From contig NZ_QPIB01000007.1 of NCBI RefSeq assembly GCF_003671765.1, positions 379,536-443,535 of the forward strand: a stretch of DNA of 64,000 nt, read 5' to 3'. A program made the translations under genes and the position numbers. The notes beneath the pieces were generated by a model, which was not told the DNA's origin, did not search any database, and saw only the letters and a program-made list of their open reading frames with translations. This DNA is from Xenophilus sp. E41 (GTDB lineage: Bacteria > Pseudomonadota > Gammaproteobacteria > Burkholderiales > Burkholderiaceae_C). Below, piece after piece: positions 581 through 60,895 of this stretch. Numbering within the stretch: the first letter of the stretch is position 1; every line of letters starts with the position of its first letter.

Positions 581-1557
581 TGACCCTTTATTCCCGCATC
601 ACCGGCACGGGCAGCTACCTGCCTCCGCGCCGGGTGACGAATGACGATCTGGCCCGCGAACTGGCCGGCCGCGGCATCGAGACGTCCGACCAGTGGATCA
701 TCGAGCGCACCGGCATCCGGGCGCGCCACTTCGCGGCGCCCGAGGTGACCAGCAGCGATCTCGCCCTGCACGCCTGCCGCCACGCCCTAGAAGCGTCCGG
801 CCGCGATGCGCAGGACGTGGACCTGATCATCGTCGCGACCTCGACACCCGACATGGTGTTCCCTTCGTCGGCGGCGATTCTTCAGAACAAGCTTGGCATT
901 GCCGGCTGCCCGGCCTTCGACGTGCAGGCGGTGTGCAGCGGCTTCGTCTATGCGCTCACGGTGGCCGACGCGATGATCCGCACCGGCGGCGCCAAGTGCG
1001 CGCTGGTCGTCGGTGCCGAGGTCTTCTCGCGCATCCTCGATTTCAACGACCGCACGACCTGCGTGCTCTTCGGCGACGGCGCCGGGGCCGTGGTGCTCGA
1101 GGCGAGCGACACGCCCGGCATCCTGGCGAGCGACCTGCACGCCGACGGCTCGCACGTCGGCATCCTCTGCACGCCCGGCCACGTCTCGGGCGGCCAGGTG
1201 GTGGGCACGCCCCTGCTGCACATGGACGGCCAGGCGGTCTTCAAGCTCGCGGTCCGCGTGCTCGAGGATGCCGCCCGCGCCACCCTCGCCAAGGCCGGCA
1301 AGACCGATGCCGACATCGACTGGCTGATTCCGCACCAGGCCAACATCCGCATCATGCAGGGCACGGCCAAGAAGCTGAAGCTTCCGCTGGACAAGCTGAT
1401 CGTCACCGTCGACGAGCATGGCAACACCTCCGCGGCGTCCATTCCCCTGGCGCTCGACGCCGCCGTGCGCGACGGCAAGATCAAGAAGGGTGACACGCTC
1501 ATGCTCGAAGGCGTGGGCGGCGGCTTCACCTGGGGCGCGGTGCTATTGAATCTGTAG
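580..1557 (+). CDS. fabH: Beta-ketoacyl-ACP synthase III
   Basis: FabH condenses acetyl-CoA with malonyl-ACP to start fatty-acid synthesis. The 325-residue protein has the full family length. The catalytic triad is visible: Cys119 in [10 protein letters not shown], His252 in [10 protein letters not shown] and Asn282 in HGNTSAAS, with the C-terminal GGGFTWGA loop intact. The start ATG at 580 overlaps the plsX stop by one base. Oddity: the last codons and the TAG stop lie inside a copy of the dispersed 17-bp palindrome R1 (1542-1558), so the C-terminal LLNL and the stop are contributed by the repeat. TAG is a rare stop in such a GC-rich genome. Followed after 51 bp by fabD in the same direction. 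Confidence 0.97.
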
Positions 1558-1558
1558 C
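1542..1558. repeat. R1 dispersed palindrome, copy 1 (in fabH stop)
   Basis: GCTATTGAATCTGTAGC: left arm GCTAT, 7-base gap, right arm GTAGC. It covers the final codons and the TAG stop of fabH. It is the first of the R1 family in this window; all copies have the same arm and gap lengths. Confidence 0.8.
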
Positions 1559-1563
1559 AGCTT

Positions 1564-1582
1564 GCGCCCGCTGGACGGGCGC
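1564..1582 (+). other. Stem-loop between fabH and fabD
   Basis: A perfect 7-bp stem GCGCCCG / CGGGCGC with a 5-base loop lies 6 bp after the fabH stop. There is no T-tract, so it is not an intrinsic terminator. It could stabilise the upstream mRNA or set the fabH/fabD ratio; that role is inference. Confidence 0.5.
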
Positions 1583-1608
1583 TGCGGCTCGATTGGAGAC
1601 ACAAAACG

Positions 1609-2559
1609 ATGAAGACCTTCGCATTCGTCTTTCCTGGGCAGGGTTCGCAGGCCGTGGGCATGCTGGACGCTTGGGGCGACCATCCCGCCGTGCGCGACAC
1701 CCTGGCCGAGGCCTCGGAATCGCTGGGCGAGGACGTGGCGAAGCTGATCCACGAAGGCCCCAAGGAAGCGCTGGCGCTCACCACCAACACCCAGCCCGTG
1801 ATGCTGGTGGCCGGCGTCGCCGCCTGGCGCGCCTGGCTGGCCGAGGGTGGCGCGCAGCCGGCCGTCGTGGCGGGCCATTCGCTCGGCGAGTACTCGGCCC
1901 TGGTGGCCGCCGGCGTGCTCACGCTCGCGCAGGCCGCGCCGCTGGTGCGCTTCCGCGCCCAGGCCATGCAGGAGGCGGTGCCGGTGGGCGTTGGCGCCAT
2001 GGCCGCCATCCTCGGCATGGAATCCGCCAAGGTCATCGCCGGTTGTGCCGAGGTATCGGCCGGCTTCGCCGCAGGCAGCGGCGAGGTGGTGGAGGCGGTG
2101 AACTTCAACGACCCGGTGCAGACGGTGATCGCCGGCAGCAAGGCGGCGGTTGAGAAGGCCTGCGAGGTGCTGAAGGCGAACGGCGCCAAGCGCGCGCTCC
2201 CGCTGCCGGTGTCGGCGCCTTTCCACTCGAGCCTCATGCGCCCGGCGGCGGAAGCGCTCAAGGGCCGGCTGGCGGACGTGGAGCTGAAGGCGCCCGTCAT
2301 TCCGGTGCTGAACAACATCGATGTCGCGGTCGAGAGCGACCCGGCGCGCATCCGCGACGCCCTCGTGCGACAGGCGGCCGGGCCGGTGCGCTGGGTCGAG
2401 AGCGTGCAGGCGCTGCAGGCGCGCGGCGTCCAGGCCATCGTCGAGTGCGGCCCGGGCAAGGTCCTGTCCGGGATGGTCAAGCGCATCGCGCCCGACGTGG
2501 GCAACGGCGCCATCTACGACCCGGCCTCGCTGGCCGACGCCAAGCAACTGCTGGCCTGA
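1609..2559 (+). CDS. fabD: Malonyl-CoA:ACP transacylase
   Basis: FabD moves the malonyl group from CoA to ACP, supplying the elongation substrate for FabH and FabF. The protein has 316 residues, normal for the family. Visible motifs: oxyanion loop GQGSQ at residues 10-14, nucleophile elbow GHSLGEYSAL with Ser91 next to His90, the carboxylate-binding Arg in RFRAQAM near 115-117, and catalytic His206 in PFHSSLM. A GGAG ribosome site lies 9 bases before the ATG. It sits between fabH and fabG in the same direction, as in most proteobacterial fab clusters. Confidence 0.97.
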   Translation: MKTFAFVFPGQGSQAVGMLDAWGDHPAVRDTLAEASESLGEDVAKLIHEGPKEALALTTNTQPVMLVAGVAAWRAWLAEGGAQPAVVAGHSLGEYSALVAAGVLTLAQAAPLVRFRAQAMQEAVPVGVGAMAAILGMESAKVIAGCAEVSAGFAAGSGEVVEAVNFNDPVQTVIAGSKAAVEKACEVLKANGAKRALPLPVSAPFHSSLMRPAAEALKGRLADVELKAPVIPVLNNIDVAVESDPARIRDALVRQAAGPVRWVESVQALQARGVQAIVECGPGKVLSGMVKRIAPDVGNGAIYDPASLADAKQLLA

Positions 2560-2587
2560 GAAGCGCCGCATTCACCTTCCTTCTGTC

Positions 2588-3331
2588 ATGAGCATTCCCA
2601 CCATTGCGGGCCAGGTGGCCCTGGTCACGGGCGCGACGCGCGGCATCGGTGCCGCCATCGCCCTCGAACTGGCCCAGCGCGGCTACAAGGTCATCGGCAC
2701 CGGCACGTCGGCCGACGGCGCAGCCAAGATCGGCGCGGCCCTGGCGGCGCACGGCGGCCTCGGCGAGGTGCTGAACGTCACGGACGGCGCGGCGCTGGAT
2801 GCGCTGGTCGACGGCATCGTCAAGGCGCACGGCGGCCTGCATGTGCTGGTCAACAACGCCGGCATCACGCGGGACATGCTGGCCATGCGCCTGAAGGACG
2901 AGGACTGGGACGCGGTGATCGACACCAACCTCAAGGCCGTGTTCCGTGCCTCGCGCGCCGCCATCCGCCCGATGATGAAGCAGCGCTTCGGCCGCATCAT
3001 CAGCATCACGAGCGTGGTCGGCGCCTCCGGCAACCCGGGCCAGGCCAATTACGCGGCGGCCAAGGCCGGCGTGGCCGGCATGACCCGCGCCCTGGCGCGC
3101 GAACTGGGCAGCCGCAGCATCACCGTCAACTGTGTGGCACCGGGCTTCATCGAGACCGACATGACCGCCAGCCTGCCCGAGGCGCAGCAGCAGGCGCTGC
3201 TGTCGTCGATTCCGCTGGGCCATCTGGGCAAGCCGTCCGACATCGCGCATGCCGTGGCCTACCTCGCGTCGCCGCAGGCCGGTTACATCACGGGGCAGGA
3301 ACTGCACGTCAACGGCGGCATGTACATGTAG
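2588..3331 (+). CDS. fabG: 3-oxoacyl-ACP reductase FabG
   Basis: NADPH-dependent short-chain reductase that reduces beta-ketoacyl-ACP. The frame is open further upstream inside fabD, but the ATG at 2588 gives the standard 247-residue protein beginning MSIPTIAGQVALVTGATRG. Cofactor motif TGATRGIG is at residues 14-21 and NNAG at 89-92. The catalytic tetrad is Asn114, Ser142, Tyr155 and Lys159 (YAAAK). The C-terminus ends in the usual HVNGGMYM. It lies 28 bp after fabD and 100 bp before acpP. A short GC stem (3334-3345) followed by five T after the stop is too weak to call a terminator. Confidence 0.97.
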   Translation: MSIPTIAGQVALVTGATRGIGAAIALELAQRGYKVIGTGTSADGAAKIGAALAAHGGLGEVLNVTDGAALDALVDGIVKAHGGLHVLVNNAGITRDMLAMRLKDEDWDAVIDTNLKAVFRASRAAIRPMMKQRFGRIISITSVVGASGNPGQANYAAAKAGVAGMTRALARELGSRSITVNCVAPGFIETDMTASLPEAQQQALLSSIPLGHLGKPSDIAHAVAYLASPQAGYITGQELHVNGGMYM

Positions 3332-3673
<342 letters not shown>

Positions 3674-3795
3674 TCCAGGCCCTTGCGGAAGCCGAGCCCG
3701 CGCAACCGGGGCCGGCGCCGATGGCGCTGCTGCCGCCCGCGTGACCGTGCGATGCGGCATCGCTTCCTTCCCTTTTCCCAGAAAGGCTCGCCGGC

Positions 3796-5040
3796 ATGAC
3801 CCTACGCCGCGTCGTCGTGACCGGGCTCGGTTGCGTTTCTCCCGTCGGCAACACCGTTGCCGACAGCTGGGCCGGCCTGATCGCAGGCAGGTCCGGGATC
3901 GACACCATCACCAAGTTCGATGTCAGCGCCTTCGCCTGCAAGTTCGCCGGCCAAGTCAAGGACTTCGACATCACGAAGTACATCTCCGAGAAGGAAGCGC
4001 GTCACATGGACCGCTTCATCCATCTCGGGATGGCCGCGTCGATCCAGGCGGTCGAGGACAGTGGGCTGCCCACCGGCGATGCGCTCACGCCGGAGCTGGC
4101 CTCGCGCATCGGCTGCAACATCGGTTCGGGCATCGGCGGCCTGCCGCTGATCGAGGACACGCACGCCGAACTGGTCAACCGCGGTCCGCGCCGCATCTCG
4201 CCCTTCTTCGTACCGGCCTCGATCATCAACATGATCTCGGGCCACGTGTCGATCAAGTACGGCTTCACCGGCGCGAACATCGCCGTCGTGACGGCGTGCA
4301 CGACCGGCCTGCACGCCATCGGCCTGTCGGCCCGGCTGATCCAGGCCGGCGATGCCGACGTGATGGTCGCCGGCGGTGCCGAGTCGACGGTCTCGCCCTT
4401 GGGCATCGGCGGCTTCGCGGCGGCTCGCGCCCTGAGCACCCGCAACGACGATCCGGCGACGGCCTCTCGTCCGTGGGACAAGGACCGTGACGGCTTCGTG
4501 CTCGGCGAGGGCGCGGGCGTGCTGGTGATCGAGGAGTACGAGCACGCCAAGGCCCGCGGCGCCAAGATCTATGCGGAACTGGTCGGCTTCGGCATGAGCG
4601 CCGACGCGTACCACATGACCGCGCCCAACGTCGATGGCCCGCGCCGCTCGATGGAGGCGGCACTGCGCAACGCAGGCATTAATGCCGACCAGGTGAACTA
4701 CCTCAATGCGCACGGCACCTCGACGCCGCTGGGCGACCTCAACGAGACGAACGCGATCAAGAACGCCTTTGGCAGCCACGCGAAGAAGCTCGTCGTGAAC
4801 TCGACCAAGTCGATGACCGGCCACCTGCTGGGCGGCGCCGGTGGCATCGAGTCGGTGTTCACGGTGCTGGCCGTGCACCACCAGAAGAGTCCGCCGACCA
4901 TCAACATCTTCAACCAGGACCCGGAATGCGACCTGGACTACTGCGCCAACGAGGCGCGGGACATGAAGATCGACGTGGCCGTGAAGAACAACTTCGGGTT
5001 CGGTGGCACCAACGGCACCCTGGTGTTCAAGCGCGTCTGA
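3796..5040 (+). CDS. fabF: Beta-ketoacyl-ACP synthase II
   Basis: FabF performs the elongation condensations of fatty-acid synthesis. The protein is 414 residues long. The Cys-His-His active site is complete: Cys168 in [10 protein letters not shown], His306 in [11 protein letters not shown] and His343 in [10 protein letters not shown], with Lys338 in NSTKSMTG. The GFGGTNG motif closes the C-terminus. It is the last gene of the fab cluster. The next gene starts 22 bp on, so the fab genes and the sigma-E module may share a transcript. FabB and FabF are close relatives; the acpP-fabF order favours FabF. Confidence 0.97.
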
Positions 5041-5062
5041 CCCGCCGGAACACGTCGCCCGC

Positions 5063-5554
5063 ATGCACAGCGCCCCATCGGTGAGCTATCCGGTGGGGCG
5101 CTCGCGCGTCGGACACGCCATTCTCTGGACCCTTTGGGCCGCAGGCGCTTGCTGCGCCTGCGCATGGCGCTATCAAAATAATAGCGATGAGGGGCGCTGG
5201 GCGATGGTGCTCGGCGCTTTCGTCCTCGCTTCGCTCGCGCTGGCGTGGGCGCTCAGGCCGCAGGCGGCCCGGGTGTTGCGGTGGGACGGGGCCTTCTGGT
5301 CCCTCTCGGGCGCCAAGCCCCTGGGCATGGCCGAAGCAAGCGTGGCGCTCGATCTGCAAGGCACGCTGCTGCTGCGCCTGCAGGAAGCCGGCCGCGCCAC
5401 CCAATGGCTCTGGACCGACCGGGCCGCGGCGCCCGAGCGCTGGAACGCGATGCGCCGTGCGGTATATTGCCGCGCCCCGAGCCCGCAAGACGCCGGTCTC
5501 GCCCCTGCCGTCGCTGCAGCGCCGCCTCCCCGCACCCCCGATCTCCCCGCATGA
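5063..5554 (+). CDS. Unknown two-helix membrane protein upstream of rpoE (YgfX-like topology)
   Basis: 163 residues, not recognised by sequence. Two hydrophobic segments are visible, about residues 18-35 and 47-64, joined by a short polar loop and followed by a soluble C-terminal domain of about 95 residues ending in a proline-rich tail. The layout (two helices, then a small cytosolic domain) resembles YgfX/CptA proteins, but no diagnostic motif was identified. Its stop overlaps the rpoE ATG in an ATGA arrangement, which implies translational coupling with sigma-E. Oddity: an R1 palindrome (5169-5185) lies in frame and encodes the loop between the helices (YQNNSD). ATG 5063 is preferred to an upstream start inside fabF. 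Confidence 0.7.
   Translation: MHSAPSVSYPVGRSRVGHAILWTLWAAGACCACAWRYQNNSDEGRWAMVLGAFVLASLALAWALRPQAARVLRWDGAFWSLSGAKPLGMAEASVALDLQGTLLLRLQEAGRATQWLWTDRAAAPERWNAMRRAVYCRAPSPQDAGLAPAVAAAPPPRTPDLPA
5169..5185. repeat. R1 dispersed palindrome, copy 2 (inside the gene before rpoE)
   Basis: GCTATCAAAATAATAGC, with perfect 5-bp arms and a 7-base gap. It is coding here and its AT-rich centre stands out against the GC-rich surroundings. It encodes the loop between two membrane helices. Confidence 0.85.
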
Positions 5555-6228: not shown

Positions 6229-6243
6229 TCACAGGTGAACGAC

Positions 6244-6948: not shown

Positions 6949-6971
6949 GGCCCGTGCGAAGCCGCCGTTTG

Positions 6972-8069: not shown

Positions 8070-8096
8070 AATCCGCGGCCCTGGCCGACGAGCGCT

Positions 8097-8123
8097 GAAC
8101 CAAAGCGACCAGGACAATTCAGA
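8097..8123 (+). promoter_or_regulatory. Candidate sigma-E promoter before mucD
   Basis: GAACCA (8097-8102), a 16-bp spacer and TCAGA (8119-8123) resemble the sigma-E consensus GAACTT-N16-TCTGA. It lies in the 94-bp gap between rseB and mucD. DegP-type proteases are classic sigma-E targets. The match is imperfect, so this is a proposal. Confidence 0.35.
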
Positions 8124-8163
8124 GCACTGTCTTGAATCCCCATCCATTCCTGAAAGCAGTTCA

Positions 8164-10142: not shown

Positions 10143-10197
10143 CTTGTGCGCTTCCCTCTGTGCGCCAGCTATTTCAAGTACTTAAGCGTTCCCGTTG

Positions 10198-12009
10198 ATG
10201 AATCACATCAGAAATTTTTCGATCATTGCGCACATCGACCACGGGAAATCGACGCTGGCTGATCGCTTGATCCAACGCTGTGGTGGCCTCGCCGAACGCG
10301 AGATGGAAGCGCAGGTGCTCGACTCGATGGACATCGAGAAAGAGCGTGGGATAACCATCAAGGCACAGACCGCCGCGCTGCACTACAAGGCGCGCGACGG
10401 CCAGGTCTACAACCTCAATCTCATCGACACGCCGGGCCACGTCGACTTCTCGTACGAAGTCTCGCGCTCTCTCTCCGCCTGCGAGGGTGCGCTGCTCGTC
10501 GTCGATGCATCGCAGGGCGTGGAAGCGCAGACGGTGGCCAACTGCTACACCGCACTCGACCTCGGTGTGGAAGTGCTGCCGGTGCTCAACAAGATGGACC
10601 TGCCGCAGTCGGACCCCGACAACGCGAAGGCCGAGATCGAGGACGTGATCGGCATCGATGCGAGCGACGCGATCCCGTGCTCGGCCAAGACCGGCATGGG
10701 CGTGGACGAGATCCTCGAAGCCATCGTCGCCAAGGTGCCCGCGCCGCGCGGCAACCCGGATGCGGCGCTGCGCGCCATGATCATCGACAGCTGGTTCGAC
10801 CCCTACGTCGGCGTCGTGATGCTGGTGCGTGTCGTCGATGGCCGCCTGGCCAAGGGCGAGCGCATCAAGATGATGGCGACGGGCGCGAGCTACAACGCCG
10901 ACAACCTCGGCGTCTTCACGCCGGCGAACGAGCCGCGCGACGCGCTGGAGGCGGGCGAGGTGGGCTACATCATCGCCGGCATCAAGGAGCTGCAGGCCGC
11001 GAAGGTGGGCGACACCGTCACGCTGATCAAGGGCGGCACGGGCGGCGCGGCCTTCACCGCGACGGAGCCCCTGCCGGGCTTCAAGGAGATCCAGCCGCAG
11101 GTCTTCGCGGGCCTGTACCCGACCGAGGCGAGCGAATACGACCAGTTGCGCGACGCGCTGGAGAAGCTCAAGCTCAACGACGCCTCGCTGCACTACGAGC
11201 CCGAGGTGAGCCAGGCGCTGGGTTTCGGCTTCCGCTGCGGCTTCCTGGGCCTGCTGCACATGGAGATCGTGCAGGAGCGCCTGGAGCGCGAGTTCGACCA
11301 GGACCTCATCACCACCGCGCCGAGCGTGGTCTACCAGGTGATGAAGAACGACGGCGAGGTCATCATGGTCGAGAACCCCGCCAAGATGCCCGACGTGGGC
11401 AAGATGGCGGAGATCCGCGAGCCCATCGTCACCGTGCACCTGTACATGCCGCAGGAGTATGTCGGCGCCGTGATGACGCTGGCCAACCAGAAGCGCGGCG
11501 TGCAGATCAACATGGCCTACCACGGTCGCCAGGTCATGCTGACCTACGACATGCCACTGGGCGAGATCGTGCTGGACTTCTTCGACAAGCTGAAGTCGGT
11601 GAGCCGCGGCTACGCCTCGATGGACTACGAATTCAAGGAGTACCGGGCGTCCGACGTGGTGAAGGTCGACATCCTGCTCAACGGCGAGAAGGTCGACGCA
11701 CTGTCGATCATCGTGCACCGCACGCAGGCCCAGTTCCGCGGTCGGGCGGTGGTCAGCAAGATGCGCGAAATCATCAGCCGCCAGATGTTCGACGTCGCGA
11801 TCCAGGCCGCCATCGGCGCCAACATCATCGCGCGCGAGACCATCAAGGCGCTGCGCAAGAACGTGCTGGCAAAATGTTACGGTGGCGACATCACCCGCAA
11901 GCGCAAGCTGCTCGAGAAGCAGAAGGCGGGCAAGAAGCGCATGAAGCAGATCGGTTCGGTCGAGGTCCCGCAAGAGGCCTTCCTCGCCATCCTGCAGGTC
12001 GAAGAATAA
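10198..12009 (+). CDS. lepA: Translation elongation factor 4 (LepA)
   Basis: Ribosome-binding GTPase related to EF-G that acts in back-translocation or initiation. 603 residues from ATG 10198; a TTG one codon upstream is in frame but [19 protein letters not shown] is the family start. G1 is AHIDHGKS (residues 11-18), G3 DTPGHVDF and G4 NKMD. The C-terminal LepA-specific domain ([19 protein letters not shown]) is complete. Followed after 37 bp by lepB, the standard lepA-lepB pair that supplies the gene name. A terminator lies just upstream. Confidence 0.98.
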
Positions 12010-14130: not shown

Positions 14131-15162
14131 ATGACCACCGATCCCAATGCTATCGATTCCGTAGCGCCCCCCGCAGGCGCCACGGGCGTTCCCGCCCCAA
14201 ATGGCTCGCACATCCCGGGCGCGGGCGGCGTGCGGCGCTGCGGCCTCGTGGCCATCGTCGGCAAGCCCAACGTGGGCAAATCCACGCTCCTCAATGCGCT
14301 GGTGGGCCAGAAGATCAGCATCACCTCGCGCAAGGCCCAGACCACGCGTCACCGCATCACCGGCATCCGCACCGTGGCGACGCCGGACGGCGGCGGCGCA
14401 CAGTTCGTCTTCGTCGACACGCCGGGTTTCCAGACCCGCCACGCCAACGCCCTCAACCGCTCGCTGAACAAGACCGTGCTGGGCGCGGTGGCGGACGTCG
14501 ACCTGATCCTCTTCGTGGTCGAAGCGGGGCGCTTTGCGCCGGCCGACGCCAAGGTGCTGTCGCTGCTGGGCAAGAACATCCCGGTGCTGCTGGTTGCCAA
14601 CAAGCTCGACACCGTGCACCGCCGGGCCGACATCGCGCCCTGGCTGGCGCAGATGCAGGCCGACAACGCGGGCGAGGGCGCCGAGCGCTTCGCCGAGTTC
14701 GTGCCAATGTCGGCCAAGAACGCCAAGGACATCGAGCGGCTCATCGGCATCTGCGAGAAGTTCCTGCCCGAGCAGCCCTGGTGGTACGACGAGGACGAGC
14801 TGACCGACCGCAGCGAGAAGTTCCTCGCCAGCGAGACGGTGCGCGAAAAGCTGTTCCGGCTCACCGGCGACGAACTGCCCTACACCTCGACCGTGGTCAT
14901 CGACAAGTTCGAGGAAGAGCCGCCGCAGAAGAAGGGACAGAAGCGCCTGGTCAAGATCGCCGCCACCATCGTGGTCGAGCGTGACGGCCACAAGGCGATG
15001 GTGATCGGCGACAAGGGCGAGCGCATCAAGCGCATCGGCACCGAGACGCGCCAGGAGCTCGAAAAACTCATGGACGCCAAGGTGTTCATCGAACTGTGGG
15101 TCAAGGTGCGCTCCGGCTGGGCCGACGACGAGGCACGCGTCAAGTCCTTCGGCTATGAGTGA
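14131..15162 (+). CDS. era: GTPase Era
   Basis: Essential GTPase that binds the 3' end of 16S rRNA during 30S maturation. 343 residues, longer than the usual 300 because of a 35-residue Pro/Ala-rich N-terminal extension. G1 GKPNVGKS is at 44-51, G2 TTRH near 71-74, G3 DTPG at 96-99 and G4 NKLD further on. The KH domain includes [14 protein letters not shown]. The extension contains an R1 palindrome in frame (14149-14165, encoding AIDSVA), so either the extension was created by insertion or translation starts downstream. No better start with a ribosome site was found. Its stop overlaps the next ATG by 8 bp. Confidence 0.96.
14149..14165. repeat. R1 dispersed palindrome, copy 3 (5' end of era)
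   Basis: GCTATCGATTCCGTAGC, left arm GCTAT, right arm GTAGC, 7-base gap, codons 7-12 of the annotated era frame. Confidence 0.8.
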
Positions 15163-17847: not shown

Positions 17848-18915
17848 ATGGCCGACTCCCTTCACCGCCCCCTCGTCATCGACGTCGCGGGCACCACGCT
17901 CACGGCCGACGACCGCCGGCGCATCGCGCATCCACAGGTCGGCGGCGTCATCCATTTCGCGCGAAACTGGGAAAGCTGCGCGCAGATGACGGCGCTCAAC
18001 GCCGAGATCAAGTCGATCAACCCGCAGGTGCTGGTCTGCGTCGACCACGAGGGCGGTCGGGTGCAGCGCTTTCGCACCGACGGCTTCACGCGCCTGCCCT
18101 CGATGCGCGCGCTGGGCGAACGCTGGATGCACGACCCGATAGAAGCCACGCAGGTGGCCACCGCGGTGGGCTTCGTTCTGGCGAGCGAACTGCGCGCCGT
18201 CGGCGTGGATTTCAGCTTTGCCCCGGTGCTCGACCTCGATCACGGCGAGAGCAGCGTCATCGGCGACCGCAGCTTCCACCGCGACCCGCGAGTCGTGGCC
18301 CTGCTGGCCAAGAGCGTCATGCACGGCATGCTGCAGGCCGGCATGGCCAACTGCGGCAAGCACTTTCCGGGACATGGCTTCGTCAAGGCCGACTCGCATA
18401 CCGCCATTCCGGTCGACCGCCGGGGGCTGAAGGCCATCCTCGGCGACGACGGCCGACCCTTCGAATGGCTGGCCGGCACGCTGGATGCCGTGATGCCGGC
18501 GCACGTCATTTATGCGCGCGTCGACGCCCGGCCCGCTGGCTTCTCGGCCAAGTGGTTGCAGGAGATCCTGCGCGGCCGCCTCGGCTTCGAGGGCGCGATC
18601 TTCAGCGACGACCTCAGCATGGAGGCGGGGCGCTACATCGATGGCCGCTTGCTGAGCTACACCGACGCCGCGCTGGCGGCGCTCGCGGCCGGATGCGACC
18701 TGGCGATGCTGTGCAACCAGAGTGTGGGCGCCGGTGCGCCGCTGGACGAACTGCTGGAGGGCTTCGCCGCGGCGGCGGCGGGGCGGCGCTGGCGGCCGGT
18801 GCACGACAGCGAAGTGCGACGCCAGGCCCTGCTGCCGCAGGCTGCGGGGCGGGACTGGGGCGCGCTCAAGGTCTTCGCTCCGTACGATGCAGCGCGCCGG
18901 CTGCTATCGAGTTGA
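17848..18915 (+). CDS. nagZ: Beta-N-acetylhexosaminidase NagZ
   Basis: Cytosolic GH3 enzyme that removes GlcNAc from anhydromuropeptides in cell-wall recycling; its product is the inducer of AmpC systems. 355 residues. The GH3 signature KHFPGHG is at 171-177 with Asp182 and His184 in ADSHT forming the acid/base pair. The nucleophile is probably Asp254 in IFSDDLSM. Starts 1 bp after acpS. The last codons and the TGA stop lie inside an R1 copy (18903-18919), so the C-terminal LLSS is repeat-derived. A 320-bp poorly coding gap follows. Confidence 0.95.
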   Translation: MADSLHRPLVIDVAGTTLTADDRRRIAHPQVGGVIHFARNWESCAQMTALNAEIKSINPQVLVCVDHEGGRVQRFRTDGFTRLPSMRALGERWMHDPIEATQVATAVGFVLASELRAVGVDFSFAPVLDLDHGESSVIGDRSFHRDPRVVALLAKSVMHGMLQAGMANCGKHFPGHGFVKADSHTAIPVDRRGLKAILGDDGRPFEWLAGTLDAVMPAHVIYARVDARPAGFSAKWLQEILRGRLGFEGAIFSDDLSMEAGRYIDGRLLSYTDAALAALAAGCDLAMLCNQSVGAGAPLDELLEGFAAAAAGRRWRPVHDSEVRRQALLPQAAGRDWGALKVFAPYDAARRLLSS

Positions 18916-18919
18916 TGGC
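18903..18919. repeat. R1 dispersed palindrome, copy 4 (nagZ stop)
   Basis: GCTATCGAGTTGATGGC: left arm intact, right arm ATGGC with one mismatch, 7-base gap. It supplies the TGA stop of nagZ. Confidence 0.65.
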
Positions 18920-21574: not shown

Positions 21575-21680
21575 GAAGAAAAAAGAAAACGGAAAGGGGG
21601 CGCCAGGCGCAGCCGCACATTTTAGCTGCGCAGGTTGCAAGGCAAATCGGCCGCTGGCGCCCGTGGGACGGGCGCAACGT

Positions 21681-21697
21681 GCTATGAAAAAAGGAGC
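21681..21697. repeat. Degenerate R1 palindrome, copy 11
   Basis: GCTATGAAAAAAGGAGC: left arm intact, 7-base gap, right arm with two changes (GGAGC for GTAGC). It lies just after the stop of the LON-domain gene in the 124-bp gap before lysS. Accepted only because spacing and position fit the family. Confidence 0.35.
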
Positions 21698-26163: not shown

Positions 26164-26907
26164 TCAGGAAGCGGCGGGCGCGTCGGCTGCCGGGGTGCGG
26201 ACGAGGGCGGTGTCGGCCTCCCGCACGGCAGCGATGAACTCGCGGATCTTGCCGGCGTCCTTGATGCCCTTGCTGGCCTCGACGCCGGAACTCACGTCAA
26301 CGGACAGCGACTTTGCGCCCGTCCGCAACGCCTGCAAGGCACGCAGGCCATCGCCCACGTTTGCAGGTGTGAGCCCACCACTCAAGACGAGGTGAGCGTC
26401 GACGGCGGTTGGAAGCAGTGACCAATCGAATGCCTTGCCGCCGCCGCCAAAGCCGTCGACCTGGGCGTCGAGCAGGATGGCGTGGGCGCGGGAGAAATCG
26501 GACGCATAGTTTACGAGGTCGAAGCCGCGCCCCGCCTCGCCCAGGGGAATGCGCGCGGCGCGCAGGTAGCGAAAGCGTCCCTCGCCGCTGGCGGCCCAGC
26601 ATTGCTCGGGCGTTTCATCACCATGAAATTGGGCTGCAGCGCCCGCCATGCCTGCGAGAGCAGCTATCGTTTTCGTAGCATCCTCGTTGACGAACAGCAG
26701 CACGGGCGTGACGAAGGGGGGCAGGCGCCGTGCGAGCTCGGCCGCCCGCTGCGCGCTCACGGCCCGCGGGCTCCTGGCGTACAGCACGAAGCCGACCGCG
26801 TCGGCCCCTGCGTCCACGGCCGCATCGACGTCCTGTTCGCGCGTCAGTCCGCAGATCTTCACGCGGGTGCGCGTCGAGGCGGAGAGCTTGGAAGCGGCAT
26901 CCTTCAT
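26164..26907 (-). CDS. trpF: Phosphoribosylanthranilate isomerase
   Basis: Converts phosphoribosylanthranilate to CdRP. 247 residues, slightly longer than usual because of tails on both ends. Conserved VKICGLT holds the catalytic Cys; the catalytic Asp is in [11 protein letters not shown]; phosphate sites [10 protein letters not shown] and the QFHGDE strand are intact. Oddity: an R1 copy (26663-26679) is in frame and encodes ATKTIA after LLFVNED, a surface helix in this fold, without breaking the gene. Start overlaps the truA stop by 4 bp. Confidence 0.96.
26663..26679. repeat. R1 dispersed palindrome, copy 5 (inside trpF)
   Basis: GCTATCGTTTTCGTAGC on the plus strand, flanked by GCA and ATC. 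Read in the trpF direction it encodes Ala-Thr-Lys-Thr-Ile-Ala, nearly the same peptide as copy 8 in the lyase gene. Confidence 0.85.
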
Positions 26908-36410: not shown

Positions 36411-36581
36411 CGTGGTTCGCGAAGGCGAGCCGGGATTTTCCTACCGTTTGACCGCGTCGGCCATCGCGTATCGCGAAGAGCGTGGTGCTGCCTGGGCAAT
36501 GCCGAGGAAAATCGGCCGTCAGCGCCCGTCCTGCCTGCGCCTGCAGCTATCGAATCAATAGCATTGCGCCGTGCATAGGCA
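36411..36581. other. Spacer between the LysR gene and gltA
   Basis: Should hold the LysR promoter on the minus strand. It contains R1 copy 6 and no convincing gene. No clear -10/-35 pair was identified. Confidence 0.5.
36546..36562. repeat. R1 dispersed palindrome, copy 6
   Basis: GCTATCGAATCAATAGC, perfect arms, 7-base gap, preceded by TGCA and followed by ATTG. Intergenic, between the LysR gene and the gltA terminator. Confidence 0.88.
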
Positions 36582-41834: not shown

Positions 41835-41851
41835 GCTATCGGTTTGATAGC
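41835..41851. repeat. R1 dispersed palindrome, copy 7 (upstream of sdhC)
   Basis: GCTATCGGTTTGATAGC, perfect arms, 7-base gap, with flanking T and T. Lies upstream of the sdh promoter region and downstream of the GntR gene. Confidence 0.88.
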
Positions 41852-41903
41852 TACATGCGCCCGTCGCGCCTGCGCTGCCGCCCGATTTCCTTGTTGTCGT
41901 GCA

Positions 41904-44714: not shown

Positions 44715-45721
44715 CCACGCCGCGCCGCTCCCATCCTGCCGAGGTGCTGCTCGGGGCGCAGGCCGGTGCCGTGAGCCTGCCGGTGTGCGACCACTACAGC
44801 GGCGTCGAGGCGCGCATGCGCAAGAGCCTCGCGCTGCAGGCCCAGATGGCCGAGGAATTCGGCGCCTGCGTGTTCGACGTCACCCTCGACTGCGAGGACG
44901 GCGCGCCCGTGGGCGGCGAAGCCGAGCTCGCGCATCTGGTCACCGAACTCGCACTCGCCGCGAGACCGGGCATGCGTGTCGGCGTGCGCGTGCACCCGGT
45001 CGACCATCCGGCTTTCGAAGCCGACGTGGCCACCATCGCCGGCCGCGCCGGCGATCGTCTGAGCCACCTGATGGTGCCGAAGGTCGAGCGGCTGGAAGAC
45101 GTGGTGCGCGCCGCCGCGGCGCTGGACGCGGCTGGTGCCGCCGATCTGCCGCTGCACGTGCTCATCGAGTCGCCGCTGGCGGTGCGCCATGCCTTCGACA
45201 TGGCCGCCCACCCGCGCGTGCAGTCGCTCAGCTTCGGCCTCATGGATTTCGTCTCGGCCCACGCGGGCGCCATCCCGGCCGACGGCATGGGCGTGGCGGG
45301 CCAGTTCTCGCATCCGCTCGTGGTGCGCGCCAAGCTCGAGATCGCCTCCGCTGCCCATGCCTTCGGCAAGGTGCCCTCGCATTGCGTCGTCACCGAGTTC
45401 CGCGATGCGCAGGCCCTTCGCACCGCCGCGCGCCGCGCCAGCCGGGAGTTCGGCTACACGCGCATGTGGAGCATCCATCCGGACCAGATCCGCCCCATCC
45501 TCGAGGCCTTCGCGCCCGACGAGGAACAGATTCACATTGCTACAAAAATAATAGCTGCTGCCGCCGATGCCGACTGGGCTCCGGTCCAGTTTGATGGCAC
45601 ATTGCACGACCGCGCGAGCTACCGCCATTTCTGGCAGGTGCTGGCGCGTGCGCACGCCACCGGGCGTGCGCTGCCGTCCGAAGCGAAGGCGTGGTTCGCG
45701 CCCGCCGACGCCGAAAACTGA
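44711..45721 (+). CDS. HpcH/HpaI aldolase / CitE-like CoA-ester lyase
   Basis: 336 residues, TIM-barrel fold. Acidic metal residues are in DVTLDCEDGAPVGGE and HVLIESPLAV; VPKVERLEDV and MWSIHPDQI are family motifs. Members split malyl-CoA, citramalyl-CoA or citryl-CoA; genes for other citrate-lyase subunits are absent, so a stand-alone CoA-ester lyase or thioesterase is more likely. ATG overlaps the tam stop. An R1 copy (45539-45555) is in frame and encodes ATKIIA in a helix near residue 280. Confidence 0.85.
   Translation: MTTPRRSHPAEVLLGAQAGAVSLPVCDHYSGVEARMRKSLALQAQMAEEFGACVFDVTLDCEDGAPVGGEAELAHLVTELALAARPGMRVGVRVHPVDHPAFEADVATIAGRAGDRLSHLMVPKVERLEDVVRAAAALDAAGAADLPLHVLIESPLAVRHAFDMAAHPRVQSLSFGLMDFVSAHAGAIPADGMGVAGQFSHPLVVRAKLEIASAAHAFGKVPSHCVVTEFRDAQALRTAARRASREFGYTRMWSIHPDQIRPILEAFAPDEEQIHIATKIIAAAADADWAPVQFDGTLHDRASYRHFWQVLARAHATGRALPSEAKAWFAPADAEN
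45539..45555. repeat. R1 dispersed palindrome, copy 8 (inside the CitE-like gene)
   Basis: GCTACAAAAATAATAGC, the only copy with left arm GCTAC. In frame it encodes Ala-Thr-Lys-Ile-Ile-Ala; its AT content is strikingly different from the flanking codons. Confidence 0.82.
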
Positions 45722-55181: not shown

Positions 55182-55440
55182 GGCACGATTCCCTGTATGG
55201 ATGAACGTCCAACGGTCGAACCCGCCGGCCGGCGGACCGCCTCGCGTCAAGCCCGAGTCAAGCGTGTGACCGTTTGCGTCAGTGTGCGCCCGGGCAGGCG
55301 TGCGCGGCTGCCGTCCCGTGCCGACAGCGGCTGTAGTCGGGCCGCCGGCTTCCGGGCCGCGCGGCGCGCACCCGCTATCCTTTTAGTAGCAGTCGACGCC
55401 CGCCCCATAAGCGTCGGACGCCGATTCGGCTCCTGAACTT
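55182..55440. other. Gap between the DUF3300 and DUF3299 genes
   Basis: About 260 bp, with no gene seen. It should carry the DUF3300 promoter on the minus strand and the end of the DUF3299 transcript. R1 copy 9 lies at 55374-55390. Confidence 0.5.
55374..55390. repeat. R1 dispersed palindrome, copy 9
   Basis: GCTATCCTTTTAGTAGC, arms GCTAT and GTAGC, 7-base gap, followed by AGT. Intergenic, 50 bp from the DUF3299 stop. Confidence 0.82.
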
Positions 55441-56040: not shown

Positions 56041-56042
56041 CG

Positions 56043-57374: not shown

Positions 57375-57395
57375 GGATACGGATGCGGGAACCGT

Positions 57396-57500
57396 ACGCG
57401 AAGGACGCGAAGGTCTCGCGAAGGACGCGAAAAAGACAGCGGGAAAATTTTCATTGAATTCTTTTGCGACCTTCGCGGGACCTTTGCGCCTTTCGCGTAT
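57396..57500. repeat. R2 palindromic element, copy C (between ABC genes)
   Basis: About 105 bp. The left end TACGCGAAGGACGCGAAGG and the right end CCTTTGCGCCTTTCGCGTA are inverted; the centre is AT-rich. It fills most of the 144-bp gap between the ATPase and permease genes. Confidence 0.85.
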
Positions 57501-57518
57501 GGAGGTCCGATCCCGTTT

Positions 57519-58211
57519 TCATGCCACCGCCGAAACCGCCGCACGGTTGATCTCGGGCAAGAGCACGTGGCGCGCGAAGCGGTCGGCGATGCGGCGGTCG
57601 TGGCTCACGAAGACGAGGGCGCTGCCGTTGGCTTCGCAGGCCGCCAGCAGCACGTCGAGGAAGGCCTCGCGCCGGTCCTCGTCGAGGGCGGAGGTGGGCT
57701 CGTCGGCGATGACCAGCTCGGGCCGGCCGATGAGCGCACGCGCGGCGGCCACGCGCTGCTGCTGGCCCACCGACAGCTGCAGGGCGGTGCGCTGCCACAG
57801 CTCGGCGGGCAGGCCCATGCGGGCGAGCAGTTCCTCGGCCTGTGCGCGCGACCCCTGCACACGTCGTCGTGCCGAGAAGCGGCAGGGCAGCAGCACGTTG
57901 TCCATCACGCTCAGGTAGGGCAGCAGGTTGAACTGCTGGAAGATGTAGCCCACGTGCGCGACGCGGCAGCGGTCGCGCGCGCTGCCGCCCATGGCAGCCC
58001 AGTCGTGGCCCAGCAGGCACACGCGGCCGCTGTCCGCCACCAGCACGCCGGCCAGCAGCGACAGCAGCGTGCTCTTGCCGCAGCCGCTGGGGCCATGCAG
58101 GAACACGGCCTCGCCGGCGCGCACCTCGAAGCGCTCGATGTCGATGCACGGCGCGGCGGCGCCGGGCCAGGCGAAGCGCAGGTCCTGCGCCTGCAGGACT
58201 ACGGAGCTCAT
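57519..58211 (-). CDS. ABC transporter ATP-binding protein (LolD/MacB-like)
   Basis: 230 residues. Walker A GPSGCGKST is at 40-48, Q-loop IFQQFNLLPYLSVMDNVLLP, signature LSVGQQQR, Walker B LVIADEPTSALD, and H-loop FVSHDRR. Subfamily features match LolD/MacB-type mechanotransmission exporters or FtsX-associated importers. Downstream of the DUF2796 gene (72-bp gap) and upstream of its permease, with an R2 repeat between them. Confidence 0.93.
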   Translation of the reverse strand: MSSVVLQAQDLRFAWPGAAAPCIDIERFEVRAGEAVFLHGPSGCGKSTLLSLLAGVLVADSGRVCLLGHDWAAMGGSARDRCRVAHVGYIFQQFNLLPYLSVMDNVLLPCRFSARRRVQGSRAQAEELLARMGLPAELWQRTALQLSVGQQQRVAAARALIGRPELVIADEPTSALDEDRREAFLDVLLAACEANGSALVFVSHDRRIADRFARHVLLPEINRAAVSAVA

Positions 58212-58283
58212 TGGATAGCCCCCGCGCGACGCGCTGCGGTGCAAACTCCCTTCGGAGCGGCCGGGCGCGGGCTCATGCGCGCG

Positions 58284-58853
58284 TCACTTGCCCCAGCCGA
58301 TGCGGGCGCTGCCGGACGCGGGTCGCTTCAGGCTGCGCTTGAACTGGCCATCGGGCGCGGCGATCTCGGCCTCGATCTGACGCGTGGCGGGAAATGCCTC
58401 GAACAGCTGCGTGTCGACGAAGCGCGCCTTGGCCGCATTGGTGCAGTTGAAGGCGAAGCTGGCCTCCAGTTCCGCATGCCCGTCCTTGTCGGGCTCGGCC
58501 TTGCCCAGGCCGAGCGCGGCCGATTCGAGCTGCACCGGGCCGAGCTTGCAGCCGGCGGCCGGGTCGATCTGGAACAGGTGGTCGGCCGCACGAAGGCGTG
58601 CCACCATCTGCTCGACCGCGTTCTTCTCGACGTCGGTGCGCGGCGCGCGCTCGAAGCCCAGCAGGTTGTCCAGCGGCGACTCCATCTCGATCGTGACCGA
58701 CGGGCCGTCGACGGCGATGCCGAGCTCGACCTTGCCGTGCACGTGCGCATGCTGGGCGCGCTGCGCCAGCGCCGGTGAGGACAGCAGCACGGCGCCGGCC
58801 GTGAACAGCGAAAGGACGAGAAAGGTGCGGAAGAAGGGTCGTGTCATGCGCAT
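58284..58853 (-). CDS. DUF2796 (ZrgA-like) periplasmic protein
   Basis: 189 residues, signal peptide cleaved after residue 30 (ALA). Mature start QRAQHAHVHGKVELGIAVDG has clustered His, and the core ESPLDNLLGFERAPRTDVEKNAV is characteristic of DUF2796. ZrgA of Vibrio belongs to this family and takes part in zinc uptake together with ABC components, so a zinc role is plausible here. The long His-rich loop of ZrgA is not seen, which weakens the functional transfer. Starts 9 bp from the sulfurtransferase stop. Confidence 0.85.
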   Translation of the reverse strand: MRMTRPFFRTFLVLSLFTAGAVLLSSPALAQRAQHAHVHGKVELGIAVDGPSVTIEMESPLDNLLGFERAPRTDVEKNAVEQMVARLRAADHLFQIDPAAGCKLGPVQLESAALGLGKAEPDKDGHAELEASFAFNCTNAAKARFVDTQLFEAFPATRQIEAEIAAPDGQFKRSLKRPASGSARIGWGK

Positions 58854-58862
58854 CGTCAGCGG

Positions 58863-59774
58863 TCAGGGCTGCGGCCCCTGGCGGGTCGGCAGGCCCGGTG
58901 TGTTGCTCCATTCGCTCCAGCTGCCGGCGTACAGGGCCGGGGTGCCCAGGCCGGCGATCTGCATCGCCAGCACATTGGGCACGGCGCTCACGCCGCTGCC
59001 GCAGTGGTGCACCACGGTGGCGGGATCGCGCCCGGCCAGCAGCGCCTCGAATTCGGCGCGCAACTGCTCGGCAGGCTTGAAGCGGCCATCGGCCGTCAGG
59101 TTGTCGGCGAAGGGGCGGTTCAGCGCCCCGGGGATGTGACCGGCGATCGGGTCCAGAGGTTCCACCTCGCCGCGGTAACGAGGTGCAGCACGGGCATCGA
59201 CGAGGGTCTGCGCGGGATCGTCCAGTCCGGCCGCGACCGTCTTCGTGTCGACCAGCCGCACCAAGGGCGCACCCGGCACGAAGTTGGTCTGGAAGTGCGC
59301 CGGCTCTTCGCCCGCCTTCGCGGGCAGGCCCGCCGCCTGCCAGGCCTGCAGCCCGCCGTCGAGCACGGCCACCGCGTCGTGGCCCATCCACTTGAGCATC
59401 CACCACAGGCGCCCACAGTAGTTGGCACCGTTGCGGTCGTAGACCACGGCCTGCATGTCGTTGGCCAGCCCCACCGACGACAGCCAGGCCGCGAACTTCT
59501 CCCGGCTGGGCAGCGGGTGGCGTCCGCCCGATGCGGGCTTGTCGGCCTCCTGCGCGACCAGCACCTGGCCGCCCGGGCCCGGGTGGCCATGTCTGGCACT
59601 GAGGTCGGTGTCGAGGTTGGCGTACACCGCGCCCGGGATGTGGGCGTCGAGGTACTGCGCCGGCCCGACCTCGGGCTTCGTGAGGTCGAAGGTGCAGTCG
59701 AAGATGCGCAGCGGCGCCTTGGCATCGATCAGTGCCTGCAGTTGCGAAACGGAGATGAGCGTCGAGTAGGTCAT
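58863..59774 (-). CDS. Sulfurtransferase (3-mercaptopyruvate type, two rhodanese domains)
   Basis: 303 residues. The N-terminal inactive rhodanese domain covers about 5-150 (HIPGAVYANLDTDLSA, VVYDRNGANYCGRLWWML) and the C-terminal active one about 170-295. The catalytic Cys258 loop reads CGSGVSA, closer to the CGSGVT of mercaptopyruvate sulfurtransferases than to the CRKGVT of thiosulfate sulfurtransferases. No signal peptide, hence cytosolic. It is followed 9 bp later by the DUF2796 gene, so it may be co-transcribed with the ABC locus. Confidence 0.9.
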   Translation of the reverse strand: MTYSTLISVSQLQALIDAKAPLRIFDCTFDLTKPEVGPAQYLDAHIPGAVYANLDTDLSARHGHPGPGGQVLVAQEADKPASGGRHPLPSREKFAAWLSSVGLANDMQAVVYDRNGANYCGRLWWMLKWMGHDAVAVLDGGLQAWQAAGLPAKAGEEPAHFQTNFVPGAPLVRLVDTKTVAAGLDDPAQTLVDARAAPRYRGEVEPLDPIAGHIPGALNRPFADNLTADGRFKPAEQLRAEFEALLAGRDPATVVHHCGSGVSAVPNVLAMQIAGLGTPALYAGSWSEWSNTPGLPTRQGPQP

Positions 59775-59873
59775 GGCAGGTGGGCTGGAGGCGCGCGCCT
59801 GGCGCGCGGCAACCATTGTGCGGGCACCCGCGGCCATTCTGGACGGCGGGGCTTTGGCCGACCTGACTCGTGT

Positions 59874-60797
59874 TCAGTGCTCTTCGGCCGGCGCCTTGGG
59901 CACCGCGCGCTGGCGCAGCACCGTGGCCAGGATGCCGCTGCCGATGATCAGCGCGATGCCGCCCCAGCCGGCCAGGTCGATGCGGTCGCCGAACAGCAGC
60001 ACGCTGTAGAGCGCGCCGAACACGATGCCCGAGTACTGCAGGTTGGCCACCACCAGCGTGGCGGCCTGGGTCTTGGCGCTGGCGTAGGCCCGCGTCAGGC
60101 ACAACTGGCCCAGGGCGGCCAGCACACCCACCGGCAGCAGCCACAGCGCATGCGCCCAGGACCAGGCCGACACACCGGTGAAGAGCATCCACAGCGCGCC
60201 GGTCACGGTGGAGCCCACGGCGAAGTAGAAGACGGTGCGCGTCTCGGGCTCGCCGATGCGCGACAGCGCGATCACCTGCATGTAGGCGAAGGCGGCGGCC
60301 ATGCCCGACAGCAGGCCCACCAGGCCGGCGAAGGCGTCGGCACCCTGCGTGCTGGGCTTGAGCAGCAGCACCACCCCCACGAAGCCGGCCACCACCGTGA
60401 GCGTGAGCGGCCCCTGCAGCGGTGGCAGCGGCACGCGGCCGTTGCGCCCGGGCACCGGCGCCCACGCGAGCAGCGCGCCACCGACGAGAAAGGCCGCGAT
60501 CCAGATGCTGCTCATGTAGTTCAGCGTCATGGCCGTGGCCAGCGGCATGTGGGCGATGGCGTAGAACCAGGCGCCCAGCGATGCGGTGCCGATGATGCTG
60601 CGCCAGGCGTGCATGCCGGGGTACTGCGTCTTCAGCGTCACGCCCTGGCGGCGGGCCAGCGCGGCCAGCACGACCATGCCGATCACGCCGCGCCAGAACA
60701 CGATCTCGGAACTGGCGAACCAGGCCGAGGCGATCTTCACGCACACGCCCATGCTCGCGAAGAGCAGGGCCGACAGCAGCATCCAGAGGCTTTGCAT
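59874..60797 (-). CDS. EamA/DMT-family permease
   Basis: 307 residues with about ten hydrophobic segments in two EamA halves (first SLWMLLSALLFASMGVCVKIA ..., second AGLVGLLSGMAAAFAYMQVIAL ...). Conserved first-half pattern FWRGVIG and second-half GIVFGALYSVLLFGDRI. Probably exports metabolites, substrate unknown. Transcribed in line with the Rieske oxygenase gene upstream (106-bp gap containing R1 copy 10) and the sulfurtransferase gene downstream. Confidence 0.92.
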   Translation of the reverse strand: MQSLWMLLSALLFASMGVCVKIASAWFASSEIVFWRGVIGMVVLAALARRQGVTLKTQYPGMHAWRSIIGTASLGAWFYAIAHMPLATAMTLNYMSSIWIAAFLVGGALLAWAPVPGRNGRVPLPPLQGPLTLTVVAGFVGVVLLLKPSTQGADAFAGLVGLLSGMAAAFAYMQVIALSRIGEPETRTVFYFAVGSTVTGALWMLFTGVSAWSWAHALWLLPVGVLAALGQLCLTRAYASAKTQAATLVVANLQYSGIVFGALYSVLLFGDRIDLAGWGGIALIIGSGILATVLRQRAVPKAPAEEH

Positions 60798-60878
60798 GCC
60801 GCTCGTTCTCAGTGCATGAAGGAACAAAGGCGTCGCGAGCCGAATCGGCCCGTAACGCGCGCCGGTCGTGCGCCAGCA

Positions 60879-60895
60879 GCTATGAATTCGATAGC
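60879..60895. repeat. R1 dispersed palindrome, copy 10
   Basis: GCTATGAATTCGATAGC, perfect arms, 7-base gap that itself contains GAATTC, preceded by GCA and followed by AGA. Lies in the gap between the Rieske oxygenase and EamA genes. Confidence 0.88.

What the first reader, a model, noticed from the sequence alone, without database searches (positions are those of the whole stretch)
1542..60895. R1: a 17-bp interrupted palindrome repeated across the whole window
Copies at 1542, 5169, 14149, 18903, 26663, 36546, 41835, 45539, 55374 and 60879 (plus a degenerate one at 21681) share GCTAY-N7-RTAGC, with the gap always exactly 7 and the gap sequence different in each. At most positions the arms extend to TGCTAT or RTAGCA. 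Ten fixed positions, AT-rich in a GC-rich genome, should occur less than once by chance in 64 kb. Spacing is about 3.5-10 kb with no clustering, unlike REP/BIME or IS-derived repeats. Constant arms with free gap sequence are what a dimeric DNA-binding protein selects, so possible roles are a nucleoid or segregation signal, a DNA-uptake signal, or a minimal mobile unit. I know of no named family with this definition.
Basis: partly seen in the sequence, partly recalled or inferred. Interest (0 to 1): 0.78.

Follow-up and report, generated by a model that had tools for sequence, protein, structure and literature searches.

The report
Ancient 66-bp repeat behind stop codons
The small palindrome is the front part of a 66-base DNA element that sits hundreds of times in this bacterium and in many relatives, mostly right behind genes, and is kept in some lineages but decays in others, which points to an unknown DNA-binding partner.

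Summary
In detail: 9 exact GCTAY-N7-RTAGC in the window against 0.04 expected, 376 in the 5.92-Mb Xenophilus genome, gap 7 almost exclusively. But the palindrome is not the unit. It is the first quarter of a directional, ungapped ~66-bp element: in 1.135 Mb, 87 of 88 exact palindromes lie in one, including 45 of 45 not used to build the model. Elements are mostly non-coding, beside stop codons, on both strands. Sister species keep the palindrome at the 7 sites that could be compared (14 of 14 comparisons), while an equally close relative kept 10 of 35. At fabH the site recurs in distant genera (21 of 30 high-copy genomes), yet the two genera sampled deeply have different middle sequences. Pairing tests speak mostly against an RNA stem. 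I read it as an old REP-like repeat whose palindrome is a double-stranded DNA site for an unidentified dimeric protein, perhaps architectural. RAYT mobilisation, uptake signal, terminator and OxyR site fit less well. No published family was matched in the searches made. New variant of a known kind.

The parts
1542..1607 (+). 66-bp element at the fabH stop codon; palindrome 1542-1558; the TAG of the right arm is the fabH stop
   Evidence: FabH (ACP_syn_III) and downstream acyl transferase (FabD) by Pfam; same site in other genera
5120..5185 (-). 66-bp element; palindrome 5169-5185
   Evidence: E 5.9e-8 (copy used in training)
14149..14214 (+). 66-bp element inside the N-terminal coding region of a GTPase with KH domain (Era-like)
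18903..18919 (+). degenerate palindrome, one mismatch, at the end of a gene (17848-18915); not found by the 66-bp model at E<=1
21632..21697 (-). 66-bp element with left arm GCTCC (palindrome 21681-21697, one mismatch)
   Evidence: found by the model although not used in training
26614..26679 (-). 66-bp element inside trpF coding sequence, no length change against three low-copy relatives
   Evidence: (PRAI)
36497..36562 (-). 66-bp element between a citrate synthase gene and the next gene
41835..41900 (+). 66-bp element between a succinate dehydrogenase membrane-subunit gene and the next gene, opposite to transcription
45539..45604 (+). 66-bp element inside the coding region of an HpcH/HpaI-type aldolase gene; palindrome also exact in low-copy G153
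55374..55439 (+). 66-bp element abutting a stop codon, opposite to transcription
60830..60895 (-). 66-bp element 8 bp behind the stop codon of a ring-hydroxylating oxygenase gene

Best explanation
An old, vertically inherited, REP-like dispersed DNA element of ~66 bp, very roughly 680 copies in this Xenophilus genome (extrapolated from 131 model hits in 1.135 Mb, two of them doubles). Its left end, GCTAY-N7-RTAGC with an AT-only core, is the recognition site of an unidentified dimeric DNA-binding protein acting on double-stranded DNA. Bound sites, several kilobases apart and parked behind stop codons where they disturb neither promoters nor proteins, probably shape or mark the chromosome. Where the partner is lost or changes, the sites are no longer kept and decay, mostly by point mutation. 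Shown: the element, its fixed register, its location, retention in some lineages and loss in another, the shared site at fabH, different middles in two genera. Inferred: the protein, its dimeric binding, its loss and the architectural role.
For: Ungapped 66-column profile in 42 copies, gap always 7. 131 model hits in 1.135 Mb, 0 in the reversed decoy. Exact palindromes kept in 14 of 14 comparisons with G155/G157/G158, covering 7 distinct sites, but in 10 of 35 with G150 (2 of 6 at the same sites) although flank identity is alike (0.92-0.93 and 0.92); arm mismatches 11 of 270 against 74 of 432 (P 3e-6 and 5e-8, treating comparisons as independent, which they are not). Other low-copy genus mates keep 2 of 17. 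Position-5/13 types T..A 48, C..A 23, T..G 15, C..G 1; C..A and T..G do not depend on transcript strand (sense 9:5, antisense 11:7). A/T core. 34 of 131 hits more than 90% coding; in a smaller set 15 of 60 against 88% of random placements. Convergent 1.9, codirectional 1.0, divergent 0.26 per kb of spacer. TAGC at the fabH stop in 21 of 30 high-copy genomes. Counts split into 90 genomes with at most 10, 11 with 11-30 and 49 with at least 40, of 150.
Against: No protein was identified and no binding shown. The profile carries about 65 bits, far more than a plain binding site needs, which asks for common descent by copying. Different middles in two genera (identity 0.59 and 0.61 within, 0.38 between) suggest homogenisation or replacement, not only selection on a site. 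Even spacing is significant on one of five contigs, and one contig is less even than the null. TpA avoidance is absent in G031. The retention contrast rests on 7 distinct exact sites from one region for the sisters, and all comparisons start from copies present in the own genome. One shifted pairing register and one single pair in the middle do exceed shuffles.
Confidence: 0.42

Rival explanations
1. A REP/REPIN-like element population copied by a RAYT (REP-associated tyrosine transposase): the RTAG before a GC hairpin would be the transposase tag, and the palindrome two tags back to back.
For: One RAYT-like gene in the genome (PF01797 E 1.9e-10; NCBIfam REP_Tyr_transpos 68 bits, cut-off 80). 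A degenerate element directly follows its stop codon in Xenophilus and one of the local dialect in G031. PF01797 matches in 45 of 49 genomes with at least 40 copies against 67 of 101 others. Different middles per genus resemble RAYT-REP coevolution (abstract and passages of PMC2817692).
Against: The RAYT is not flanked by two inverted copies. Four of 49 high-copy genomes have no PF01797 match, among them G020 (420 copies, 100% complete) and G141 (309, 99%; unlisted, so without a match by elimination). G150 keeps a RAYT reading frame 94% identical over 226 residues while its elements decay. The head is mostly ATAG, not GTAG/GTGG. Close pairs are depleted. A copy is present in all 27 sister comparisons with both flanks aligned.
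Confidence: 0.25
2. An uptake or recombination signal kept by molecular drive, like DUS of Neisseriaceae, with one dialect per genus.
For: Different middles in two genera, sites in permissive places and inside genes, near absence in whole lineages. DUS dialects and their link to conversion fragments are described in PMC3630211 and PMC2397512 (passages).
Against: About one element per 8.7 kb, not thousands of copies; 66 bp, not 10-12; no competence test was possible.
Confidence: 0.1
3. A structured RNA or bidirectional transcription terminator at gene ends.
For: Lies at gene 3' ends; the middle often forms a GC hairpin followed by a short T run; at the fabH site genera have different hairpins. 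A pairing register shifted by two columns gives z 4.0 and the single pair 24-40 z 3.7.
Against: The variable arm pair 5-13 (z 0.4), the inner hairpin as a whole (z 1.25) and the outer stem (z 1.25) pair no better than shuffled partners. C..A mismatches are as common on the sense as on the antisense strand. Codirectional elements are 29 sense and 34 antisense. No Rfam match at the elements.
Confidence: 0.09
4. Binding sites of a LysR-type regulator such as OxyR, whose consensus contains CTAT-N7-ATAG.
For: [quoted passage not shown]
Against: The outer boxes are absent: ATAG with at most one mismatch at the expected left offset in 3 of 87, CTAT at the right offset in 1 of 87, no more than at other offsets. 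Divergent (promoter) spacers are avoided.
Confidence: 0.03

Closest known systems
REP / REPIN elements with RAYT transposases
   Same: Hundreds of mostly extragenic copies, lineage-specific sequence, a GC-rich middle next to an RTAG tag, long vertical persistence, a RAYT-like gene in most genomes that have it
   Different: Fixed 66-bp ungapped unit with a 17-bp dyad whose arms hardly vary in lineages that keep it; not in close pairs; RAYT not flanked by two inverted copies; decays while the RAYT frame stays open in G150
Beta-proteobacterial repeat element BRE (PMC3110155, section 14 read)
   Same: Dispersed repeat reported in Bordetella and several Comamonadaceae, mostly intergenic
   Different: BRE is ~90 bp, 1-29 copies per genome, at some loci in tandem; its letters were not available to me, so sequence identity is untested
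DNA uptake sequences (DUS/USS)
   Same: Sites in genes and spacers, differences between related genera, near absence in some lineages
   Different: Far longer and rarer; uptake not tested
Chromosome-organising palindromes (matS, SlmA sites, Noc sites; recalled, not looked up)
   Same: Dispersed short dyads bound by a dimer
   Different: Many more copies here, longer conserved neighbourhood, no known protein, distribution over replichores untested
OxyR / LysR-type operator
   Same: CTAT-N7-ATAG inner dyad
   Different: No outer boxes, divergent spacers avoided

Membership tests
REP/RAYT system | GT(A/G)G head followed by a complementary GC palindrome | tested here: not met
   Position 13 is A in 34 of 42 copies (ATAG); middle pairs 27-37 and 28-36 are standard pairs in 60 and 67 of 131. 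Head definition from passages of PMC2817692
REP/RAYT system | rayt gene flanked by two inverted cognate repeats | tested here: not met
   Own RAYT: one degenerate element on the 3' side; palindromes with up to 2 mismatches around it are 4 against 2.56 expected. 3' sides of 20 other genomes: no palindrome with fewer than 2 mismatches in the 330 nt after the stop, though partial elements are visible in some; most of the 5' side of those 20 was not fetched
REP/RAYT system | copy number follows presence of the rayt gene | tested here: inconclusive
   45 of 49 high-copy against 67 of 101 other genomes; not corrected for relatedness
REP/RAYT system | more than 100 extragenic copies per genome | tested here: met
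   376 exact palindromes in the genome; in 1.135 Mb 97 of 131 hits are not more than 90% coding
REP/RAYT system | arrangement in close alternating pairs (BIME/REPIN) | tested here: not met
   Spacings under 2 kb 7 against about 24 in the null, summed over five contigs
DUS/USS uptake signal | biased uptake of DNA carrying the site | not testable with these tools
   needs transformation assays
DUS/USS uptake signal | thousands of short copies, about one per kb | tested here: not met
   about one hit per 8.7 kb
DUS/USS uptake signal | dialects between related genera | tested here: met
   two genera measured; further middles seen in single copies
BRE of Bordetella | sequence identity to BRE | not tested
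   letters of BRE not in the text read (section 14 of PMC3110155)
BRE of Bordetella | tandem arrays of ~90-bp units at some loci | tested here: not met
   no tandem units among 131 hits; the two pairs 61-62 bp apart are near-symmetric elements found on both strands
Structured RNA / terminator | compensatory pairing and transcript-strand bias | tested here: not met
   with two pairing signals that do exceed shuffles (shifted register z 4.0, pair 24-40 z 3.7)
OxyR operator | four boxes at 11-bp steps | tested here: not met
Site of a dimeric chromosome-organising protein | a protein that binds the dyad | not testable with these tools
   no candidate identified
Site of a dimeric chromosome-organising protein | constraint on the dyad as double-stranded DNA | tested here: met
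   few distinct sites

The most novel reading that the evidence does not exclude
A genome-wide DNA signal of Comamonadaceae with hundreds of sites, at least some of them family-old and fixed in place, maintained by the host through an unknown dimeric chromosome protein and homogenised in place into a genus dialect: a site network that evolves in concert, is lost as a whole, and then decays as a whole.
Probability: 0.3. Interest if true: 0.85.

Novelty: new variant of a known kind. Interest (0 to 1): 0.6.

Why it matters
Short bacterial repeats are often seen as mobile or neutral litter. Here copies can be followed site by site between species, and one site across genera of a family: kept exactly in some lineages, decaying in a sister lineage. 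That makes it testable what keeps a dispersed repeat in a bacterial genome (host function, transposase or drive), and it offers a clean bait to fish for an unknown DNA-binding protein.

Tried and rejected
RAYT as the maintenance factor: presence is only loosely associated, and its frame is open in the decaying G150. RNA structure: little support from pairing; Rfam gives nothing at gathering and two weak hits elsewhere at E<=1. OxyR-type site: no outer boxes. Gene content of the 443-kb stretch against the G150 stretch fetched: 52 of 406 genes without a match, many at the left end, which the G150 stretch may not cover; no convincing candidate, and only 7.5% of the genome is covered. First gene caller chose wrong strands and was replaced; the gene models are my own and uncurated. 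Site 378981 (window -554) was dropped from the profile (43 copies to 42): it is a terminator-like stem present in all eight relatives aligned, low-copy ones included. Literature: nine searches; no paper naming this element was found; only open-licence PMC papers are held. PMC3733652 was only searched for six genus names, none found. E-values of copies in the 443-kb stretch are optimistic because 42 of them trained the model; 45 of 45 palindromes outside it were found. The model used for named loci was partly trained on those loci. Whether Variovorax, Comamonas or Acidovorax by name are low- or high-copy was not counted; only 17-kb loci of them were held.
Full report
Check of the observation. 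The pattern GCTAY-N7-RTAGC occurs 9 times in the window, 0.04 expected from shuffles, and 376 times in the own genome, with 73 for the pattern read backwards. In 443,535 bp that include the window 43 copies have gap 7, two have gap 2, one has gap 17, none another gap from 0 to 30. The finding is not chance. The organism is a Xenophilus: FabH of the window is 100% identical in X. aerolatus E41.

The real unit. Printing both strands around each copy showed a GC-rich stretch on one side. After orienting 43 copies, the same sequence follows without gaps: GCTAY-N7-RTAGC, TGCTCGCGC..., GGGACGGGCGCTGCAGCC, GATTT..., about 66 bp in all. A profile built from 42 of these copies (one, a terminator stem, was dropped) finds 60 elements in 443 kb at E<=0.01 and none in the reversed sequence, and 131 with no decoy in 1,135,482 bp of the own genome; two of the 131 are opposite-strand doubles of one element. 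Of 88 exact palindromes there, 87 lie in a hit; of the 45 outside the training stretch, all 45 do. Seventy-two hits lie outside the training stretch. Extrapolated to 5.92 Mb this is about 680. Hits without an exact palindrome often have a changed left arm such as GCTCC.

Place. With my own gene caller, 34 of 131 hits are more than 90% coding, although 90% of the sequence is; in the smaller set 15 of 60 against 88% of random placements. Per kb of spacer: convergent 1.9, codirectional 1.0, divergent 0.26. Many abut a stop codon: where one lies on the side of the right end, 35 of 60 are within -10 to +9 bp of it, and in 9 of 58 on the other side the palindrome overlaps the stop. Orientation is balanced: 69 plus, 62 minus; codirectional 29 sense, 34 antisense. 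On the main contig spacing is more even than random gene ends (CV 0.64 against 0.93, none of 2000 draws as low; spacings under 2 kb 5 against 15.9); the other four contigs are not significant alone, and one has a higher CV than the null. In G031, for exact palindromes, the CV is 0.83 and spacings under 2 kb are 8 against 15.1 for an exponential.

Evolution within the genus. Fifteen genomes of the genus, the own included, carry either 368-476 copies (five, two of them the same species) or 3-10 (eight), with 81 in G150 and 28 in G152. In three sister genomes at 0.92-0.93 flank identity, all 27 comparisons with both flanks aligned (14 distinct own sites) hold a copy with at most one gap, and exact palindromes are kept in 14 of 14 comparisons, which are 7 distinct sites; in G150, at 0.92, in 10 of 35 (six of the 35 with more than 8 gap columns), and in 2 of 6 of the same sites. 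The other low-copy mates keep 2 of 17 (1 of 5, 0 of 6, 1 of 5, 0 of 1). Arm mismatches are 11 of 270 in the sisters and 74 of 432 in G150, while the middle differs at 17.8% and 22.1% (sums from the table; tests treat comparisons as independent). In G150, 44 of 51 comparisons have at most 8 gap columns, so decay is mostly by substitution. At the end of fabH low-copy relatives encode the same or nearly the same residues without the palindrome, and in trpF the element lies in coding sequence whose length equals that of G151, G152 and G153, which lack it. So at these two places it is not a simple insertion. All sites were chosen because the own genome has them, which affects both comparisons alike.

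Evolution across the family. Of 150 family genomes, 49 have at least 40 copies (up to 708), 11 have 11-30 and 90 at most 10. Of 229 genomes drawn from the class, three belong to the family (the own among them) and the other 226 have at most 27. The fabH stop reads TAGC, as in the element, in 21 of 30 high-copy genomes of 28 genera, and element-like middles can be read behind most of them. Nine of the 30 lack TAGC; one of these, G031, has an element some bases further on. Among 80 named loci the models find an element there in 14, in Xenophilus, Acidovorax, Comamonas, Rhodoferax, Xylophilus, Variovorax and unnamed MAGs, in the same orientation, and TAGC in 28. Yet the middle differs between genera: in G031, 55 of 59 exact palindromes lie in 112 hits of a local model (no decoy) with the consensus TGCTTAGGCAATAAATACGCCGGCTACAGCC; the Xenophilus model finds only 5 there and the G031 model only 1 in 1.135 Mb of Xenophilus; identity of the middle is 0.59 and 0.61 within and 0.38 between. 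Part of the difference may follow genome GC. Only these two genera were measured in depth; single copies from others suggest more variants.

DNA or RNA. In 87 copies the two variable arm positions are T..A 48, C..A 23, T..G 15, C..G 1. An RNA stem would avoid C..A on the transcribed strand; sense copies have C..A 9 and T..G 5, antisense 11 and 7 (P 1). Shuffled-partner tests give no excess pairing for pair 5-13 (z 0.4), the inner hairpin (z 1.25) or the outer stem (z 1.25), while the arms as a whole reach z 1.7; against this, a register shifted by two columns gives z 4.0 and the single pair 24-40 z 3.7, which I cannot explain. In Xenophilus the three central gap bases are A/T in 94% and avoid TpA (2 against 17.9), as rigid A-tracts do; in G031 they do not. 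I conclude that the dyad is most likely read as double-stranded DNA, as by a dimeric protein.

What it is. The anatomy resembles REP elements, but defining associations fail or stay open: the head is mostly ATAG; the single RAYT-like gene has one degenerate element behind it, not two inverted ones; 4 of 49 high-copy genomes have no PF01797 match; and G150 keeps a RAYT frame at 94% identity while its elements decay. RAYT-REP traits are taken from the abstract and passages of PMC2817692, persistence of REPINs from passages of PMC8049555. The high information content and the different middles argue that copying or homogenisation made the family; the conservation of the arms at shared sites argues that the host now keeps them. 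My best reading joins the two: an old repeat whose dyad became, or always was, a protein site. The protein, its loss in low-copy lineages, and the architectural role are inference.

Literature. The only published beta-proteobacterial repeat found is BRE (passages and section 14 of PMC3110155), which differs in length, number and tandem arrangement; its letters were not available. Nine searches of the open PMC library listed no description of this element; subscription papers are not held.

Noticed in passing
own contig C41:378981-378997 (554 bases left of the window), L088 about 6867: A GCTAC-N7-GTAGC stem inside a terminator-like hairpin (AAGGCCCG...CGGGCCTT), between a short gene that looks like rpmF and a gene that looks like plsX (by eye), present in all eight relatives aligned, low-copy ones included; a different thing that matches the same pattern. 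Similar stems appear in many of the other genera.
   Followed up: partly
L016 1462-2157 and L273-L292: A RAYT-like gene directly upstream of a gene that looks like gltB (by eye) in many genera is followed by a conserved pair of motifs like TGTCCC(C)AATT ... TCTGACCCC(A)ATT, perhaps its own cognate repeats.
   Followed up: partly
window 45539-45555: The palindrome inside an aldolase gene is exact in the low-copy relative G153 too, so coding constraint or AT-rich codons may explain this copy.
   Followed up: no
L097-L120, spacer after fabF: Several Variovorax loci keep a copy like GCTATCGAAGAGATAGC here and the palindrome-like fabH end; possibly remnants held by coding constraint. Their genome-wide copy number was not counted.
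   Followed up: no
window 10183-10277 (-): Weak Rfam match to AsrC (32 bits, gathering 111), probably chance.
   Followed up: no
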